DNA of 39,131 nt from Syntrophales bacterium (GTDB taxonomy: Bacteria > Desulfobacterota > Syntrophia > Syntrophales > UBA4778): NCBI GenBank assembly GCA_028712885.1, contig JAQTPK010000028.1:1-39131 (forward strand), read 5' to 3'. The notes below the pieces were generated by a model that saw only the letters and a program-made list of their open reading frames with translations, searched no databases and had not been told where the DNA came from. This document shows positions 3,643 through 35,346 of this stretch, one piece after another. The position numbers and the translations under genes are program-made. How positions within the stretch are numbered: the stretch's first letter is position 1; every line of letters starts with the position of its first letter.

Positions 3643-7728
<4,086 letters not shown>

Positions 7729-30668: not shown

Positions 30669-31262
30669 ATGCGTCATAGAAAAGCAGGAAGAAAATTAGG
30701 CCGTACCACAAGCCATAAAAATGCGATGCTCAGGAACATGGTGACTTCCTTCCTGAAGGACGAAAAAATCGTCACTACGGACGCGAAGGCGAAGGAACTG
30801 AGGTCAGTCGCGGAAAAAATGATTACCCTGGGAAAAAGGGGAAACCTCCATGCCAGGAGGCAGGCGCTGAGTTTCATCCGCGACAAGAAAATCGCCAAAA
30901 AGGTTTTCGAGGAAATATCCCCGCGCTTTTCGGAGCGGGCCGGCGGATATACGCGGATAGTGAAAATCGGCAACCGCGAGGGGGACAATGCGCCCGTTTC
31001 CCTGATTGAGCTTGTCGCCCGGGCGGAGGAGAAACCGAAGAAGGGCAAAGGCAAGGAAAAAGCCAAACCGGAATCCAAGACCAAGGCGGCGGCGAAGACC
31101 AAAAAGGCAGCAAAGCCGAAAGCTGAAGCCAAAGAAAAAAAAGCGGAAGCGAAGCCGAAGTCCAAGGCGAAGGCCAAAACGGAAGAAAAAGAAAAGACAC
31201 AACCGGCAACCAAACCGAAGGCCGAGGCAAAACCGAAAACGGAAGAAAAAAAAGAAGCCTGA
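30669..31262 (+). CDS. rplQ: 50S ribosomal protein L17 with long Lys/Ala-rich tail
   Basis: A 197-residue L17. The core (1-118) is standard: [38 protein letters not shown] and [20 protein letters not shown]. The rest (about 119-197) is a low-complexity tail of Lys, Ala, Glu and Pro with a recurring KPKAEAK-like unit, where most L17 proteins end near 118-130. The tail is in frame and ends just before the operon terminator. It should be disordered and strongly basic. SD is TGGAG. Confidence 0.95.
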
Positions 31263-31297
31263 TTCAATCCCGGCTTCGGCGCCATAGAAAAGACAGG

Positions 31298-31333
31298 GGG
31301 TTAGAGGAACGGAAATTCTTCTAACCCTTTTTT
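31298..31333 (+). terminator. intrinsic terminator of the superoperon
   Basis: GGGTTAGA (31298-31305) and TCTAACCC (31320-31327) form an 8-bp perfect stem that GAA/TTC extends inside. It is followed by six Ts (31328-31333). It lies 36 nt after the rplQ stop and is the first strong terminator after rpmG. Confidence 0.85.
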
Positions 31334-31392
31334 CGTGTTCACTTCCGAACCGATTTCTAACGGATTGGAAAGAATTATTTCTATGCTGTAGT

Positions 31393-31410
31393 CGCAGGCT
31401 TCAGCCTGCG
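31393..31410. repeat. palindrome CGCAGGCT-TC-AGCCTGCG
   Basis: Two perfect 8-bp arms separated by TC. It looks like the interspersed REP-type palindrome built around a GCAGGCT/AGCCTGC core that occurs in many bacterial genomes. I recall this type from genome reading and did not count copies. It lies in the gene-free stretch 31334-31748. Confidence 0.55.
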
Positions 31411-31455
31411 CAATGATCCTGTAGATGAGCGGTCGGGGCGGATTCCTCCCTGCGC

Positions 31456-31489
31456 CCTTCGACAAGCTCAGGACAAGCTCTGTCGAAGG
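31456..31489. repeat. REP-like palindrome CCTTCGACA...TGTCGAAGG
   Basis: CCTTCGACA (31456-31464) and TGTCGAAGG (31481-31489) are exact complements, and two AGCTC copies lie between them. The word CTTCGACAAGCTCAGGAC is a widely spread intergenic palindrome in bacteria. In other frames it gives the familiar false peptides FDKLRT and ELVLSLSKG. Confidence 0.7.
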
Positions 31490-31494
31490 ATGCT

Positions 31495-31515
31495 GTCCGG
31501 AATCCGGCCCCACCC
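31495..31515. repeat. short third copy of the flanking repeat
   Basis: These 21 bases match 33101-33120 except for one inserted A. They form the core (GTCCGG, then CCGGCCCCACCC) of the longer direct repeat found at 31646-31729 and 33096-33179. The similarity stops after the CACCC end. Confidence 0.6.
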
Positions 31516-31603
31516 GCGCACCGAAAATATCCGGAAAACCGCTGGACTGTTTGGGCAACAGGCCCTTGAGTTATCCCCCCGCAGAGCAGTCCTCGACTAT
31601 GCA

Positions 31604-31631
31604 AACCAGAAACTATAAACCGGAAACCAGA
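31604..31631. repeat. heptamer array H (word AACCAGA), single arm
   Basis: Four 7-mers, AACCAGA, AACTATA, AACCGGA and AACCAGA, run without a break. A similar but more degenerate AGAAAC-type tract lies at about 33060-33090, in the same place relative to the other copy of the direct repeat. No complementary arm is seen next to it. Confidence 0.65.
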
Positions 31632-31645
31632 TAATTTAACTTGGA

Positions 31646-31729
31646 GCGCCGTCGGGAACATGGCCCCGCCCGCAACCTCTTAAGAATTCTGACGACCCCT
31701 TCATGTCTCATGTCAAGGGCGGACTCCTC
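31646..31729. repeat. direct repeat, copy 1 (downstream of ATPase gene)
   Basis: About 84 bp that align with 33096-33179 with roughly 60 of 83 bases identical by eye and two single-base gaps. Shared blocks are GCGCCGTC, GGCCCC(A/G)CCC, TAAGA and CCCCTTC(A/G)TGTCTCA. The CTTCATG / TCTCATG part again has a 7-bp step. The two copies bracket the minus-strand ATPase gene in the same orientation. Confidence 0.65.
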
Positions 31730-31748
31730 GGACCTTTCTCCGCTCCCC

Positions 31749-32972
31749 CTACATTTGCGAGTAGGGCAAGGCTATCATATTTGAACCGAGAGGGAGCCGG
31801 ACTTCGCCGGGATGAACAACAAATCCCGGCAGCACCTTTTTTCCGAAATCTTCCTGAAAGGTCTTGATCGATGCGGCCATCTCCGGCCGAGGGGTGGCCG
31901 AGAGTTTCACCTCGACGGGAATAAGCTTGCCCTCCGTCGCGATCAGGATATCCACTTCAGTGCCGAAGGAAGTGCGCCAGAAGTACATCTGCGGATCAAT
32001 TCCCCGGTGTGTAAGCGTCTTATAGATTTCCGTAACAACCGCTGTCTCCATGATCGGACCGCCCATCGGACCTGAAGCGGCATGATCGGGATCTTTCAGG
32101 CCTGTAAGATAGCAGAGCATGCCCACATCCATGAAATAAACCTTGGGCGTCTTGACGAGTCGTTTATTGAGATTGGCGAAATACGGTCTCAGGATAAGTA
32201 TCTGATATGTGGCTTCCAGCACGGAAATCCAGGCTTTCACGGTATTGACGGCGACTCCCAGGTCTCTGGCCAGGTCGGTGATATTCAGTAACTGAGCGCT
32301 TCGCGCAGACAGCGCCCGCAGGAAACTCTGAAATTGGGACAGATCTCCGATCTGCCTGAGGTTGCGTACATCGCGTTCAAGGTATGTCTGAACGTAACTA
32401 GAATACCATAGATTGATGTCGCGTCCGGGATTCGCAATGAGTTCCGGAAAGGTGCCGCGGAGAAACCCGGCCCAGAGTTTCCTGTAGGAGATTTTCTTTT
32501 CAGGATTCCAGTGTCCCTTCGATTCCCATGGAAGAGGGGCAGAGGGCTCGCGATCAATCTCCCGGCGGGAAAAAGGCAAAAGCTTCAGCACGGCTGTCCG
32601 GCCGGCCAAAGTTTCCGATACTCTTGCCGTAAGCAGAATGTTCTGAGATCCCGTAAGCAGAAATTGGCCTGTGCGTTTCCGATCGGCGTCAATGTATTCT
32701 TTTACATAGGGAAGAAGTTCCGGCGCGTATTGCACCTCGTCGAAGATGACGGGAGGAGCATTCATGTCAAGAAAGCCCCTGGGGTCTCGGGCAGCCGCTG
32801 CTCTGATGTCGGGCGGTTCCAGAGAAACATATTTGTATTTTGCACCGAAGAGATGTTTGAGCAGCGTTGTTTTTCCCGACTGACGCGGTCCGGTCAGGAC
32901 AACCGCCGGGAATTCCCCCGCCGCCCTTCGCAGCACCGGCTCCAGCGATCTTTCGATGTAATCCGTCCGCAT
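31749..32972 (-). CDS. AAA ATPase with DUF4143 domain
   Basis: A 407-residue protein and the only minus-strand gene in the window. Walker A GPRQSGKT is at residues 28-35, Walker B VIFDEVQ at 75-81, and a sensor-like LLTGSQN at 105-111. A winged-helix-like stretch (NITDLARDLGVAVNTVKAW) lies near 225-245. The C-terminal DUF4143 part ends in a PD-(D/E)xK-like motif: EVDILI, then PVEVKLS. The family is very common, patchy and of unknown cellular role. ATG 32972 is chosen with AGAGG about 7 nt upstream; the frame is open to a TTG at 32990. It is probably an acquired gene. Confidence 0.93.
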   Translation of the reverse strand: MRTDYIERSLEPVLRRAAGEFPAVVLTGPRQSGKTTLLKHLFGAKYKYVSLEPPDIRAAAARDPRGFLDMNAPPVIFDEVQYAPELLPYVKEYIDADRKRTGQFLLTGSQNILLTARVSETLAGRTAVLKLLPFSRREIDREPSAPLPWESKGHWNPEKKISYRKLWAGFLRGTFPELIANPGRDINLWYSSYVQTYLERDVRNLRQIGDLSQFQSFLRALSARSAQLLNITDLARDLGVAVNTVKAWISVLEATYQILILRPYFANLNKRLVKTPKVYFMDVGMLCYLTGLKDPDHAASGPMGGPIMETAVVTEIYKTLTHRGIDPQMYFWRTSFGTEVDILIATEGKLIPVEVKLSATPRPEMAASIKTFQEDFGKKVLPGFVVHPGEVRLPLGSNMIALPYSQM

Positions 32973-32982
32973 AAACGCCTCT

Positions 32983-33019
32983 ACTTGCAATTATGCATTC
33001 AAAATGCACTATTGCAAGT
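32983..33019 (-). promoter_or_regulatory. operator-like dyad over the ATPase promoter
   Basis: ACTTGCAAT (32983-32991) and ATTGCAAGT (33011-33019) are a perfect 9-bp inverted repeat. A second one, TGCATT (32994-32999) and AATGCA (33003-33008), is nested inside. Read on the minus strand, TTGCAA and CATAAT with a 16-nt spacer form a plausible promoter that falls inside the dyad. This arrangement suggests binding by a dimeric regulator, perhaps autoregulation; no regulator gene is identified. Confidence 0.5.
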
Positions 33020-33095
33020 ATTTTTTGCCCCGCATTGCCGCCGTCGGAAACCATATGTGAACCAGAAGGACAAGAAACGAGAAACTTAAACTCAG

Positions 33096-33179
33096 GCGCC
33101 GTCCGGATCCGGCCCCACCCATGGTCTCGTAAGATTTCCGAATCCCCCCTTCGTGTCTCACGTCACGGTAAGACCCCTC
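33096..33179. repeat. direct repeat, copy 2 (upstream of ATPase gene)
   Basis: Partner of the copy at 31646-31729, same orientation, about 1450 bp apart. A degenerate AGAAAC tract (33060-33090) precedes it, as array H precedes copy 1. The gene-free stretch 32991-33565 holds the dyad, this copy, a GGGGAGTGTCCC motif and the inverted heptamer array at 33256-33345. Confidence 0.65.
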
Positions 33180-33255
33180 ACCGTTCATATCCCTCACCTT
33201 CTCCGAGGTTTCCGTCTGTTCGTTTCTATTTGGAAATATGGGGAGTGTCCCTAAT

Positions 33256-33345
33256 TTTAGTTCCCGGTTTCCGTTCCCGGTTCCGTAAGAAGCCCGAGAC
33301 TTCAGCGGATAACTGTAAATTGAGAACTGTGAACCGGGAACTGAA
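33256..33345. repeat. heptamer inverted array J (word AACTGTG / CCCGGTT)
   Basis: Left units TTTAGTT, CCCGGTT, TCCGTTC and CCGGTTC run from 33256 to 33283. Right units AACTGTA, AATTGAG, AACTGTG, AACCGGG and AACTGAA run from 33311 to 33345. CCCGGTT (33263-33269) and AACCGGG (33332-33338) are exact complements in register, and the outermost pair has one wobble. About 27 nt separate the arms. It lies upstream of the small EF-like gene. Confidence 0.78.
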
Positions 33346-33565: not shown

Positions 33566-33820
33566 ATGCCGGAAGACAAAGTCGGTGAAGTGGTAAAGTT
33601 CTTTGCAAAACCGAGCGTAGCGGCGGTAAAGATCACTGCCGGTGAATTAAACGTCGGCGACAAAGTGAAATTCACCGGTCATACCACGGATTTCGAAACC
33701 ACGATCGATTCCATGGAAATTAATAATCAGAAAGTGGAAAAGGCGGTGCCGGGCGACTACATAGGAATAAAGATTTCGGATCGGGTTCGTCCCGGCGATG
33801 AAATGCTGAAGATCACATGA
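33566..33820 (+). CDS. Small EF-Tu domain-II-like protein
   Basis: An 84-residue protein with the beta-barrel fold pattern of EF-Tu/EF-1A domain II: VGEVVKFFAKPSVAAVKITA, LNVGDKVKFTGHTTDF, then EKAVPGDYIGIKISDRVRPG. It has no G domain. Stand-alone proteins of this type are annotated as translation elongation factor-like; their function is not known to me, and related barrels occur at the end of U32 peptidases. SD GAAGGAGGT is strong, and a perfect terminator follows, so it is a single-gene unit. A weak promoter (TTGATT, 17 nt, GATAAA) may start near 33427. Confidence 0.85.
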   Translation: MPEDKVGEVVKFFAKPSVAAVKITAGELNVGDKVKFTGHTTDFETTIDSMEINNQKVEKAVPGDYIGIKISDRVRPGDEMLKIT

Positions 33821-34017: not shown

Positions 34018-35346
34018 ATGAAACCTTCAATTTCTGAAGTGAAGAGGGATCCGCTCGGATTTCTGGATTCCCTGGACAGCGGGCGGATACGTCTGGATCT
34101 CGATCCCCTCCTGGCCGTGCTTCGCCGGCTCGGAGATCCCCACCGGCGGATACGGTCCGTCCTTGTGGCCGGATCGAACGGGAAGGGATCGGTTTCGGCG
34201 ATGATCTCCTCCCTGCTCATCGAAAACGGGTTCAGGACAGGCTTGTACACGTCGCCGCACCTGACGGATTTCCGGGAGCGGATACGCATAGACGGCCGTC
34301 TCATCCCGCGCAGGGAGCTTCACGAGCGGATTGAGGAGGTGCGGGCCTGTATCGGAAGCGAGGACATCACCTATTTTGAATTCGCCACAGCGGTCGCTTT
34401 CTGTCATTTCCGCCGCTGCGGAACGGATATCGCCGTGCTGGAGGTCGGTCTCGGGGGAAGACTGGACGCAACAAATGTCGTGACGCCGGAACTCTCGATC
34501 ATCACAAACGTGTGCATGGAGCACACGGAATACCTGGGCAAAACCCTGCGGGAAATCGCCGCGGAGAAGGCGGGCGTAATAAAAGAGAGGGGCGTTTGCG
34601 TAACCGGCGCCGGAGCGGGCAAAGTAATCGAGGTGCTCTCCGAAACCTGTCGCAGGAGGGGCTCCAAGCTGTACCGCCTCGGGAAGGATTTCCGGATCCG
34701 CTCCGGGGGCGGCGGTTCCTTCCGTTATCGCGGGATCGGCCTGGACCTGCCGCGGGTAAGGACGCCCCTGACGGGGAGGCACCAGGAGGAGAATGCCGCC
34801 CTGGCCATTGCCGCCGCGGAGATCCTCACGCAGAAGGGATGGCTCCTGGATACGGAGCGGACCCTGGCCGGTCTCGGCAGGACCCGTTGGGACGGCAGAA
34901 TGGAGGTGGTCGGGGAAAAACCTCTCCTGATTCTCGACGGCGCCCATAACCCGGCGGGAGCGGAAGCGCTCAACAAAAGCCTGGCAAGAGATTTTCCGGG
35001 CCGGCGGATTATCTTCATCTTCGGCGTGCTGCGGGACAAGAATTTTCGCCGCATGCTGAAAACGCTTGCTCCCGCGGCATGGCGCATTGTCGCCTCGGGA
35101 ATCAGGAACGACCGGGCCCTTTCCGCCGGGGAAGTCGCCGCGGAAGCGCGCCGGCGTCACAACCGGGTGTTTGAGGCGGAATGCGTCGCCGAAGCCCTGG
35201 AATCGGCCCTCGCCATGGCGGGTCCGGACGATCTGGTGTGCGTTACCGGGTCGCTGTACCTTGTAGGCGAAGCGAAGATGCTTCTGGAAAAGGTAAAAGC
35301 CGGAAAAAAGGAGACCGGGGGGCTGAGAATCTTAAAATACGGCTGA
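34018..35346 (+). CDS. folC: Folylpolyglutamate synthase / dihydrofolate synthase
   Basis: A 442-residue Mur-ligase-family enzyme that adds glutamate to dihydropteroate or folates. The ATP loop GSNGKGS is at residues 52-58, followed by the folate loop region TSPHLTDFRERI, EVGLGGRLDATNVV, the MEHTEYLGKTLREIAAEKAG block and DGAHNPAG in the C-terminal domain. The ATG has no SD at the usual distance; GGAGGGG (33993-33999) is about 18 nt away with a small hairpin between them. lptD follows after 42 nt. Confidence 0.96.
   Translation: MKPSISEVKRDPLGFLDSLDSGRIRLDLDPLLAVLRRLGDPHRRIRSVLVAGSNGKGSVSAMISSLLIENGFRTGLYTSPHLTDFRERIRIDGRLIPRRELHERIEEVRACIGSEDITYFEFATAVAFCHFRRCGTDIAVLEVGLGGRLDATNVVTPELSIITNVCMEHTEYLGKTLREIAAEKAGVIKERGVCVTGAGAGKVIEVLSETCRRRGSKLYRLGKDFRIRSGGGGSFRYRGIGLDLPRVRTPLTGRHQEENAALAIAAAEILTQKGWLLDTERTLAGLGRTRWDGRMEVVGEKPLLILDGAHNPAGAEALNKSLARDFPGRRIIFIFGVLRDKNFRRMLKTLAPAAWRIVASGIRNDRALSAGEVAAEARRRHNRVFEAECVAEALESALAMAGPDDLVCVTGSLYLVGEAKMLLEKVKAGKKETGGLRILKYG

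What the first reader, a model, noticed from the sequence alone, without database searches (positions are those of the whole stretch)
31604..33180. ATPase gene set between diverged composite direct repeats
Copies at 31646-31729 and 33096-33179 are about 73 percent identical by eye, same orientation and each preceded by an AAAC-rich 7-bp tract. The only minus-strand gene lies exactly between them, and a 21-base third copy sits at 31495. This looks like a cassette that entered or duplicated through the repeats, with flanks now decayed.
Basis: partly seen in the sequence, partly recalled or inferred. Interest (0 to 1): 0.55.

Follow-up and report, generated by a model that had tools for sequence, protein, structure and literature searches.

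The report
Jumping single ATPase gene between repeats
A lone gene for a DNA-handling ATPase, related to suspected anti-virus proteins and apparently carrying its own switch sequence, has been dropped between two old housekeeping genes and sits between two worn copies of the same stretch of DNA, which may be the scar of its arrival.

Summary
The repeats are real: 31623-31738 and 33074-33186 align at 71% identity over 118 columns; score 58 against at most 32 in 1000 shuffles. No other full copy was found in the genome, but a 22-nt block of it occurs exactly at 7 other places. The "third copy" at 31495 belongs to another, MITE-like repeat. Between the repeats lies only an AAA_14-DUF4143 ATPase (candidate defence family PDC-S01), absent from this place in 29 of 29 relatives examined; homologues occur in many phyla. 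Homologues in different surroundings share DNA only from a promoter palindrome, or the gene start, to about the stop codon. A few homologues sit between direct repeats of tRNA, tmRNA or gene 3' ends, one with the empty site in a congener. So the cassette reading is partly supported: an acquired one-gene unit, the repeats probably its scar. But flanking repeats are not general (8 of 85 against 6 of 146 controls, p=0.09), and no empty site was found for this copy. Defence function and mobilising enzyme are unproven.

The parts
30669..31262 (+). rplQ (ribosomal protein L17) with a Lys/Ala-rich tail; left border of the insertion region
   Evidence: name from knowledge; next to rpoA in the 29 relative loci examined
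31296..31333 (+). terminator-like hairpin GGGTTAGAGG...CTAACCCTTTTTT after rplQ
   Evidence: read from the sequence by eye
31385..31413 (+). interspersed palindrome TGTAGTCGCAGGCTTCAGCCTGCG
   Evidence: six short matches elsewhere in the genome
   Evidence: right arm in at least 11 other places over 63-81 nt; complete copies have ends GGGCCTGTTGCCCAAA / TTTGGGCAACAGGCCC
31623..31738 (+). direct repeat copy 1 (A-rich tract + GCGCCGTC block + tail)
31749..32972 (-). AAA_14-DUF4143 ATPase, PADLOC family PDC-S01, 407 aa from the ATG that fits the homologues (413 aa from an upstream TTG at 32990)
   Evidence: Pfam 2.2e-45 and 1e-27; PADLOC 2.6e-119; model with mean pLDDT 88
32982..33020 (-). operator-like palindrome TACTTGCAATAGTGCATTTTGAATGCATAATTGCAAGTA over the probable promoter (TTGCAA-N16-CATAAT)
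   Evidence: similar palindromes upstream of homologues
33074..33186 (+). direct repeat copy 2
33226..33259 (+). end fragment GGAAATATGGGGAGTGTCCCT of a second interspersed MITE-like family
   Evidence: many short matches in the genome; two-ended copies in L004 and L012
33256..33345 (+). inverted repeat AGTTCCCGGTT...AACCGGGAACT with partial copies elsewhere
33566..33820 (+). 84-aa protein resembling EF-Tu domain 2; right border of the insertion region
   Evidence: Pfam 3.5e-09; found near rplQ in 28 of 29 relative loci

Best explanation
A one-gene mobile unit, consisting of a promoter with a built-in palindromic operator plus an ATPase gene of the PDC-S01 family, was acquired horizontally and inserted between rplQ and the EF-Tu-domain-2-like gene. 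The direct repeats at 31623-31738 and 33074-33186 are the scar: one composite stretch of intergenic DNA, already holding an interspersed-repeat module, became two when the unit entered. The likeliest route is a single crossover with a circle or fragment that carried a related copy of the stretch, or a duplication of the target. Shown here: the repeats; the absence of the ATPase at this place in the relatives examined; the spread of homologues; the limits of the DNA they share; the palindrome in most close homologues; direct repeats around some homologues, with an empty site for one. Inferred: that the window's repeats arose in the same event; that the ATPase's winged helix binds the palindrome and controls its own gene; that the AAA+ and PD-(D/E)XK domains make a DNA-cutting, perhaps antiviral, enzyme. 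The mobilising enzyme is not identified.
For: Repeat: score 58 vs at most 32 in 1000 shuffles; the tails alone score 58, reached by 0 of 1000 shuffles; full composite found only here in the genome. So the doubled stretch spans tract, block and tail, which suits duplication of one composite site. Insertion: the gap between rplQ and the EF-Tu-like gene is 215 bp in the same-family genome G001 and 2303 bp here; ATPase in 0 of 29 relative loci. HGT: 101 confirmed relatives, 80 kept, 39-77% identity, many phyla; in the order 56 of 155 genomes match at E<=1e-60, 8 of them (own included) at 56% identity or more. Unit limits: of 264 pairs at 74% DNA identity or more (not the same locus), 20 share over 150 bp of flank; of the others 216 have enough flank, and in these shared DNA never reaches beyond 91 nt before the start or 59 nt past the stop; the 3' edge lies within 15 nt of the gene end in 191 of 216. 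Palindrome: 56 of 74 usable loci vs 1 of 1437 background windows. Direct repeats: L124, 23 of 23 nt of a tRNA-Gly 3' end, empty site in congener G025; L156, tmRNA 3' end, score 38 vs null maximum 23; L185, 63-bp repeat at 98% whose right half was found only at the two places beside the ATPase; L221, 267-bp livF 3' end. tRNA/tmRNA: 10 in 73 kb of flank within 500 bp; all 14 within 1.3 kb face the ATPase with their 3' end.
Against: Gene-aligned control: score >=35 in 8 of 85 ATPase entries vs 6 of 146 other ORFs, p=0.09; >=30: 11 vs 7, p=0.026; >=40: 7 vs 4, p=0.06; >=46: 6 vs 4, p=0.11; >=58: 4 vs 4, p=0.33. Flanking repeats are thus at best a minority feature. Of 15 loci with a nearby tRNA or tmRNA only 2 had a clear repeat of its 3' end beyond the ATPase, one (L163) was borderline, and two had 120 bp or less to search. 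The repeat of L135 has further partial copies in its genome. Part of the window's repeat is an interspersed module. No single-copy empty site for the window: no convincing match in 20 relatives. Identity of 71% leaves room for two separate insertions of a rare element. In 116 of 216 pairs the shared DNA begins less than 25 nt before the start or inside the gene, so at 74-90% identity the limits may only reflect selection; the closer pairs in different surroundings are few. The palindrome is not seen in 18 of 74 loci by the strict expression (several of these have variants), not in L207 (61% identical), and not in this form in homologues at about 45% identity or less.
Confidence: 0.5

Rival explanations
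1. Two separate insertions of a rare interspersed element (a relative of the MITE-like family that shares its GCGCCGTCCGGAACCCGGCCCC block) on either side of an independently acquired ATPase, in a spacer that collects repeats.
For: The spacer holds pieces of at least four other interspersed repeats. The block occurs exactly at 7 places outside the window, 6 of them in MITE-like arms and one at C42:64343; C42 has an A-rich tract before the block.
Against: No other full composite was found in the genome, and the tails do not match the MITE tail (965 and 81 of 1000 shuffles reach the observed scores).
Confidence: 0.33
2. Composite transposon or IS-flanked cassette moved by a transposase acting on the repeats.
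For: Two same-direction repeats flank one cargo gene.
Against: The copies are about 115 bp and hold no transposase gene; no further full copy was found in the genome.
Confidence: 0.04
3. The ATPase arrived by ordinary homologous or illegitimate recombination, and the repeats are unrelated to it: a local duplication in a repeat-rich spacer.
For: Flanking repeats are not significantly enriched in the family at the >=35 threshold.
Against: The two copies bracket the ATPase closely (10 nt from the stop codon on one side) and no other full copy was found.
Confidence: 0.13

Closest known systems
PDC-S01, candidate phage-defence family of PADLOC (AAA_14 + DUF4143 ATPase)
   Same: Best PADLOC profile matches residues 4-412 at 2.6e-119; an ATPase fused to a PD-(D/E)-X-K member, as PMC12988326 describes for PDC-S01 (passages read).
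   Different: I found nothing that sets the protein itself apart. The palindrome, the unit limits and the flanking direct repeats are not mentioned in the passages I saw; nor do those passages report antiviral activity of PDC-S01.
Genomic islands and integrative elements at tRNA/tmRNA 3' ends (general knowledge)
   Same: Homologues L124 and L156 lie between a tRNA or tmRNA and a repeat of its 3' end.
   Different: In L124 the insert holds one recognisable gene and I saw no recombinase in it; the window copy is not at a tRNA.
MITE/REP-like interspersed elements of the same genome
   Same: Share the GCGCCGTCCGGAACCCGGCCCC block with the flanking repeats.
   Different: The tails differ, and the ends of the MITE-like element are not seen in the two copies.

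Membership tests
PDC-S01 (PADLOC) | match to the family profile over the whole protein | tested here: met
   2.6e-119, residues 4-412 of 413
PDC-S01 (PADLOC) | AAA ATPase motifs and D-E-K nuclease motif | tested here: met
   G34, K40, T41, D84, E85, D347 and E360 are invariant in 48 sequences, K362 nearly so; AAA_14 and DUF4143 domains. The roles of these motifs are recalled.
PDC-S01 (PADLOC) | antiviral activity | not testable with these tools
   needs infection assays; [quoted passage not shown]
tRNA-targeted integrative element | insertion at a tRNA/tmRNA 3' end with att repeat | tested here: not met
   for the window: its only tRNA found is at 249-325; the feature is seen in homologues L124 and L156
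tRNA-targeted integrative element | site-specific recombinase gene | tested here: not met
   inner segment 31739-33073 holds one recognisable gene, the ATPase
composite transposon | flanking copies are insertion sequences with a transposase | tested here: not met
   copies are about 115 bp with no transposase gene
target-site duplication | single copy at the empty site | tested here: inconclusive
   no convincing copy in 20 relatives, best E 0.0143

The most novel reading that the evidence does not exclude
PDC-S01 genes are one-gene mobile elements: the AAA+/winged-helix/PD-(D/E)XK protein itself recognises the palindrome at the left end of its unit and drives excision and insertion, preferring 3' ends of tRNAs and genes and often leaving direct repeats; the supposed defence gene is a selfish element, or both.
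Probability: 0.1. Interest if true: 0.85.

Novelty: new variant of a known kind. Interest (0 to 1): 0.5.

Why it matters
[quoted passage not shown] A cis-acting palindrome that goes with the gene in most close homologues gives a direct handle on its regulation, and an empty site plus defined unit ends give a handle on how a gene without a recombinase of its own moves. Both can be tested with simple DNA-binding and excision assays.

Tried and rejected
Third copy at 31495: rejected, it is the arm of another repeat. MITE origin of the whole composite: not supported for the tails. Flanking repeats as a general rule of the family: not supported; an earlier control with sliding windows gave, at >=40, 5 of 61 loci vs 16 of 858 windows, but the windows overlap and are not aligned to genes, so I rely. 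A still earlier null of 600 mismatched pairs had a 99% point of 28 and a maximum of 82. Phage or virus carriage: no viral contig matched with the single protein, one 28% match over 115 residues with the alignment, 4 phage records at 24-39% identity. Plasmids: 36 records at E<=1e-60, all under 60% identity, best listed 41.5% (15 of 36 listed). Solved structures by sequence: none at E<=0.01; by fold: AAA+ proteins of ORC/RFC/RuvB type, best 2qen (TM-score 0.42 by query), and Can2 nucleases (about 0.2). RNA families: 4 matches, all below gathering score. Papers: DUF4143 with ATPase 1 paper, DUF4143 1, PDC-S01 3, COG1373 7, guilt-by-embedding 4, two combined searches 0. I read passages of PMC12988326, PMC13356809 and PMC10782964, and saw only search listings of the others. 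In those I saw no description of the palindrome or of unit ends; this says nothing of literature not held. Rows dropped: 3 of the 80 loci (L179, L190, L192) were left out of my table as partial matches; 3 of the remaining 77 had no usable upstream; of 106 loci 102 were non-redundant, and 85 entries, window included, had usable flanks. The output was cut; I repeated the count, where 16 of 280 pairs were the same locus fetched twice, and some loci still enter twice (for example L134, L206 and L254). The expression for the palindrome was written after looking at the sequences, so its 56 of 74 is not a blind test.

Full report
Setting. The window is a whole contig, G000:C36, of a 2.93-Mb, 97-contig assembly. 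The best match of the ATPase in a named record is a Syntrophaceae MAG at 77%. The region holds rpoA, rplQ (30669-31262), the ATPase on the minus strand (31749-32972), an 84-aa EF-Tu-domain-2-like gene (33566-33820) and a folC-like gene (34018-35346) (the names rpoA, rplQ and folC are from knowledge).

Observation. Copies 31623-31738 and 33074-33186 align over 118 columns with 84 matches and 7 gap columns. The score of 58 exceeds the maximum of 32 in 1000 shuffles. A sequence model of both copies was run on the own genome and 20 relatives. In the own genome there are 11 matches at E<=1: the two window copies at full length, six MITE-like arms and C42 matching the 5' part (one arm, C56, over positions 22-117 of 122 with 33 bits), and two weak ones (C65, C53). 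In relatives 7 of 20 genomes have a match at E<=1, best 0.0143, none convincing. The 22-nt block GCGCCGTCCGGAACCCGGCCCC with up to 3 mismatches has 8 matches in the genome: 7 exact, all outside the window, and copy 1 with 3 mismatches; the backward control has 0. Of the 7, six lie in MITE-like arms and one (C42) follows an A-rich tract. So the block without this ATPase is common, the full composite is not.

The third copy. 31492-31572 matches at least 11 other places over 63-81 nt at 91-98% identity (40 of 73 candidates scored). Reading those places shows an element with ends GGGCCTGTTGCCCAAA / TTTGGGCAACAGGCCC in a long and a short form. The window copy lacks the left end and has a different palindrome in its centre. 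The spacer is thus a patchwork of interspersed repeats, and the two copies are a separate thing within it.

Copies against the MITE arm. Outside the block the tails of copies 1 and 2 match each other (score 58, 0 of 1000 shuffles) but not the MITE tail (965 and 81 of 1000 shuffles reach the observed scores). The doubled stretch thus spans A-rich tract, block and tail. Duplication of one composite site explains this with fewer steps than two insertions of a family of which no other full member was found.

The gene. Pfam: DUF4143 2.2e-45 and AAA_14 1e-27. PADLOC: PDC-S01 2.6e-119. NCBIfam: none. AlphaFold2 with 48 sequences: mean pLDDT 88, pTM 0.88. Helices 237-244 and 248-260 with a following strand look like a winged helix-turn-helix, and the strands at 335-361 hold D347 and E360, with K362 next to them (my reading). 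Foldseek finds AAA+ proteins and Can2 nucleases, all with low TM-scores. Two other DUF4143 genes lie in the genome.

Absence in relatives. rplQ was found in 39 of 41 genomes (own included); loci were made for 30, own included. In the 29 relative loci, 28 have the EF-Tu-like gene near rplQ (not found in L043) and 0 of 29 have the ATPase. In the same-family genome G001 the gap is 215 bp; here it is 2303 bp. The other 9 relatives with rplQ were not examined.

Horizontal spread. A scan of species genomes gave 101 confirmed relatives, of which 80 were kept, 39-77% identical, in records titled as Deltaproteobacteria or Desulfobacteraceae, Zixiibacteriota, Pirellulales, Nitrospirae, Actinomycetota, Chloroflexi, Latescibacterota, Acidobacteria, Gemmatimonadota and Gammaproteobacteria, among others (nearly all are MAG titles, so some binning error is possible). 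In the order, 56 of 155 genomes match at E<=1e-60; 8 hold a copy at 56% or more, own included.

The operator. Upstream of most close homologues lies a palindrome TGCATTnnnAATGCA between a -35-like TTGACA/TTGCAA and a -10-like CATAAT. A strict expression, written after seeing the sequences, fits 56 of 74 usable loci against 1 of 1437 background windows from the same loci. Among the 18 misses several have variant palindromes; L171 has a similar motif farther upstream; in L175 and L176 I see none. In the order, L207 (61%) shows none and L209 (55%) a partial one; homologues at about 45% or less lack this form, some having other palindromes (for example L215, L216, L219: ATTGAAA...TTTCAAT). Of the two members with the most different helix-turn-helix in the 48-sequence set, L200 has a clearly different palindrome and L197 a weaker one. 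That the protein binds it is inferred.

Limits of the unit. Of 280 pairs at 74% DNA identity or more, 16 are one locus fetched twice and 20 share more than 150 bp of flank on a side (for example L150/L154, L175/L176, L152/L153). Of the remaining 244, 216 have enough flank. In these 216 no shared stretch goes beyond 91 nt before the start codon position or 59 nt past the gene end; the 5' edge lies 25-95 nt before the start in 100 and closer or inside the gene in 116; the 3' edge lies within 15 nt of the gene end in 191. For L162/L170 (85%) shared DNA begins at the palindrome. The closest pairs in different surroundings are L217/L218 (97%, -85 to +28), L156/L159 (94%, -69 to +59) and L221/L222 (94%, -91 to +53); L225/L230 (93%) has only 59 nt of upstream to compare. 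No common terminal sequence was seen. For the window and L205/L124 the shared DNA starts 53-54 nt before the ATG.

Direct repeats around homologues. Test with 400-bp flanks: score >=35 in 8 of 85 ATPase entries (window included) and 6 of 146 control ORFs, p=0.09; >=30, 11 vs 7, p=0.026; >=58, 4 vs 4. So not a rule. Single cases are instructive. L124: tRNA-Gly at 3746-3820, ATPase, then a perfect 23-nt copy of the tRNA 3' end at 5477; congener G025 has the same two neighbour genes, one tRNA-Gly and no ATPase between, and its tRNA is followed by DNA like that beyond L124's second repeat. In the other congener, G007, and in G009 no tRNA was found at the matching place, so only one empty site supports this. 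L156: a repeat of the tmRNA 3' end, score 38 against a null maximum of 23. L185: 63 bp at 98%; of 82 matches in its genome all but the two beside the ATPase cover only query positions 1-50, so the right half was found doubled only here (40 of 147 candidates scored), the same anatomy as the window. L135: its repeat has further partial copies. L169 and L186: the repeats look like REP elements by eye. L221 (43% identical to the window protein): intact livF-like gene (name from knowledge), ATPase, 267-bp fragment of its 3' end, 91% identical, 21 synonymous and 1 nonsynonymous codon differences against 16.1 nonsynonymous (minimum 9 in 2000 trials) for random changes; the two copies thus diverged while both were functional, so one came with the insert or from another genome, or is the relic of an old tandem paralogue, which I cannot exclude.

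tRNA bias. In 77 loci, 10 tRNA/tmRNA genes lie within 500 bp of the ATPase (13.6 per 100 kb), 4 at 500-1300 bp (3.7) and 5 farther out (1.6); all 14 within 1.3 kb have the 3' end towards the ATPase, farther out 1 of 5. Some loci share surroundings (L152/L153/L157, L156/L163, L168/L196), so about 10 are independent. Beyond the ATPase a repeat of the RNA 3' end was clear in 2 of 15, borderline in L163.

Conclusion. It is well supported that the ATPase is an acquired one-gene unit with its own promoter and a likely operator. That the repeats are its insertion scar is my leading reading at about even odds. The mobilising enzyme is open: one acting in trans, general recombination, or, boldest, the ATPase itself.

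Noticed in passing
31425-31579 and loci L048-L058: MITE-like family with ends GGGCCTGTTGCCCAAA, in a long form with a large central hairpin and a short form; several copies lie inside another repeat (GGGGTCAGGTCTT / GACCTGACCCC).
   Followed up: partly
33226-33259; L004, L012: Second MITE-like family whose ends read GGGACACTCCC and GGAAATATGGG(G/A)AGTGTCCCT; many end fragments in the genome.
   Followed up: no
33566-33820: 84-aa EF-Tu-domain-2-like protein close to rplQ in 28 of 29 relative loci; role unknown.
   Followed up: partly
L078, L079 (other DUF4143 genes of the genome): Each seems to have its own, different AT-rich palindrome just upstream of the start codon, by eye.
   Followed up: no
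L123, L125, L129, L158 and others: PDC-S01 homologues lie next to tRNA-Asn, tRNA-Met or tmRNA more often than expected from farther flanks; the 14 RNA genes within 1.3 kb all face them with the 3' end.
   Followed up: partly
31038-31262: rplQ has a long Lys/Ala/Glu-rich C-terminal extension with internal repeats; homology to relatives' rplQ mostly ends before its end.
   Followed up: no
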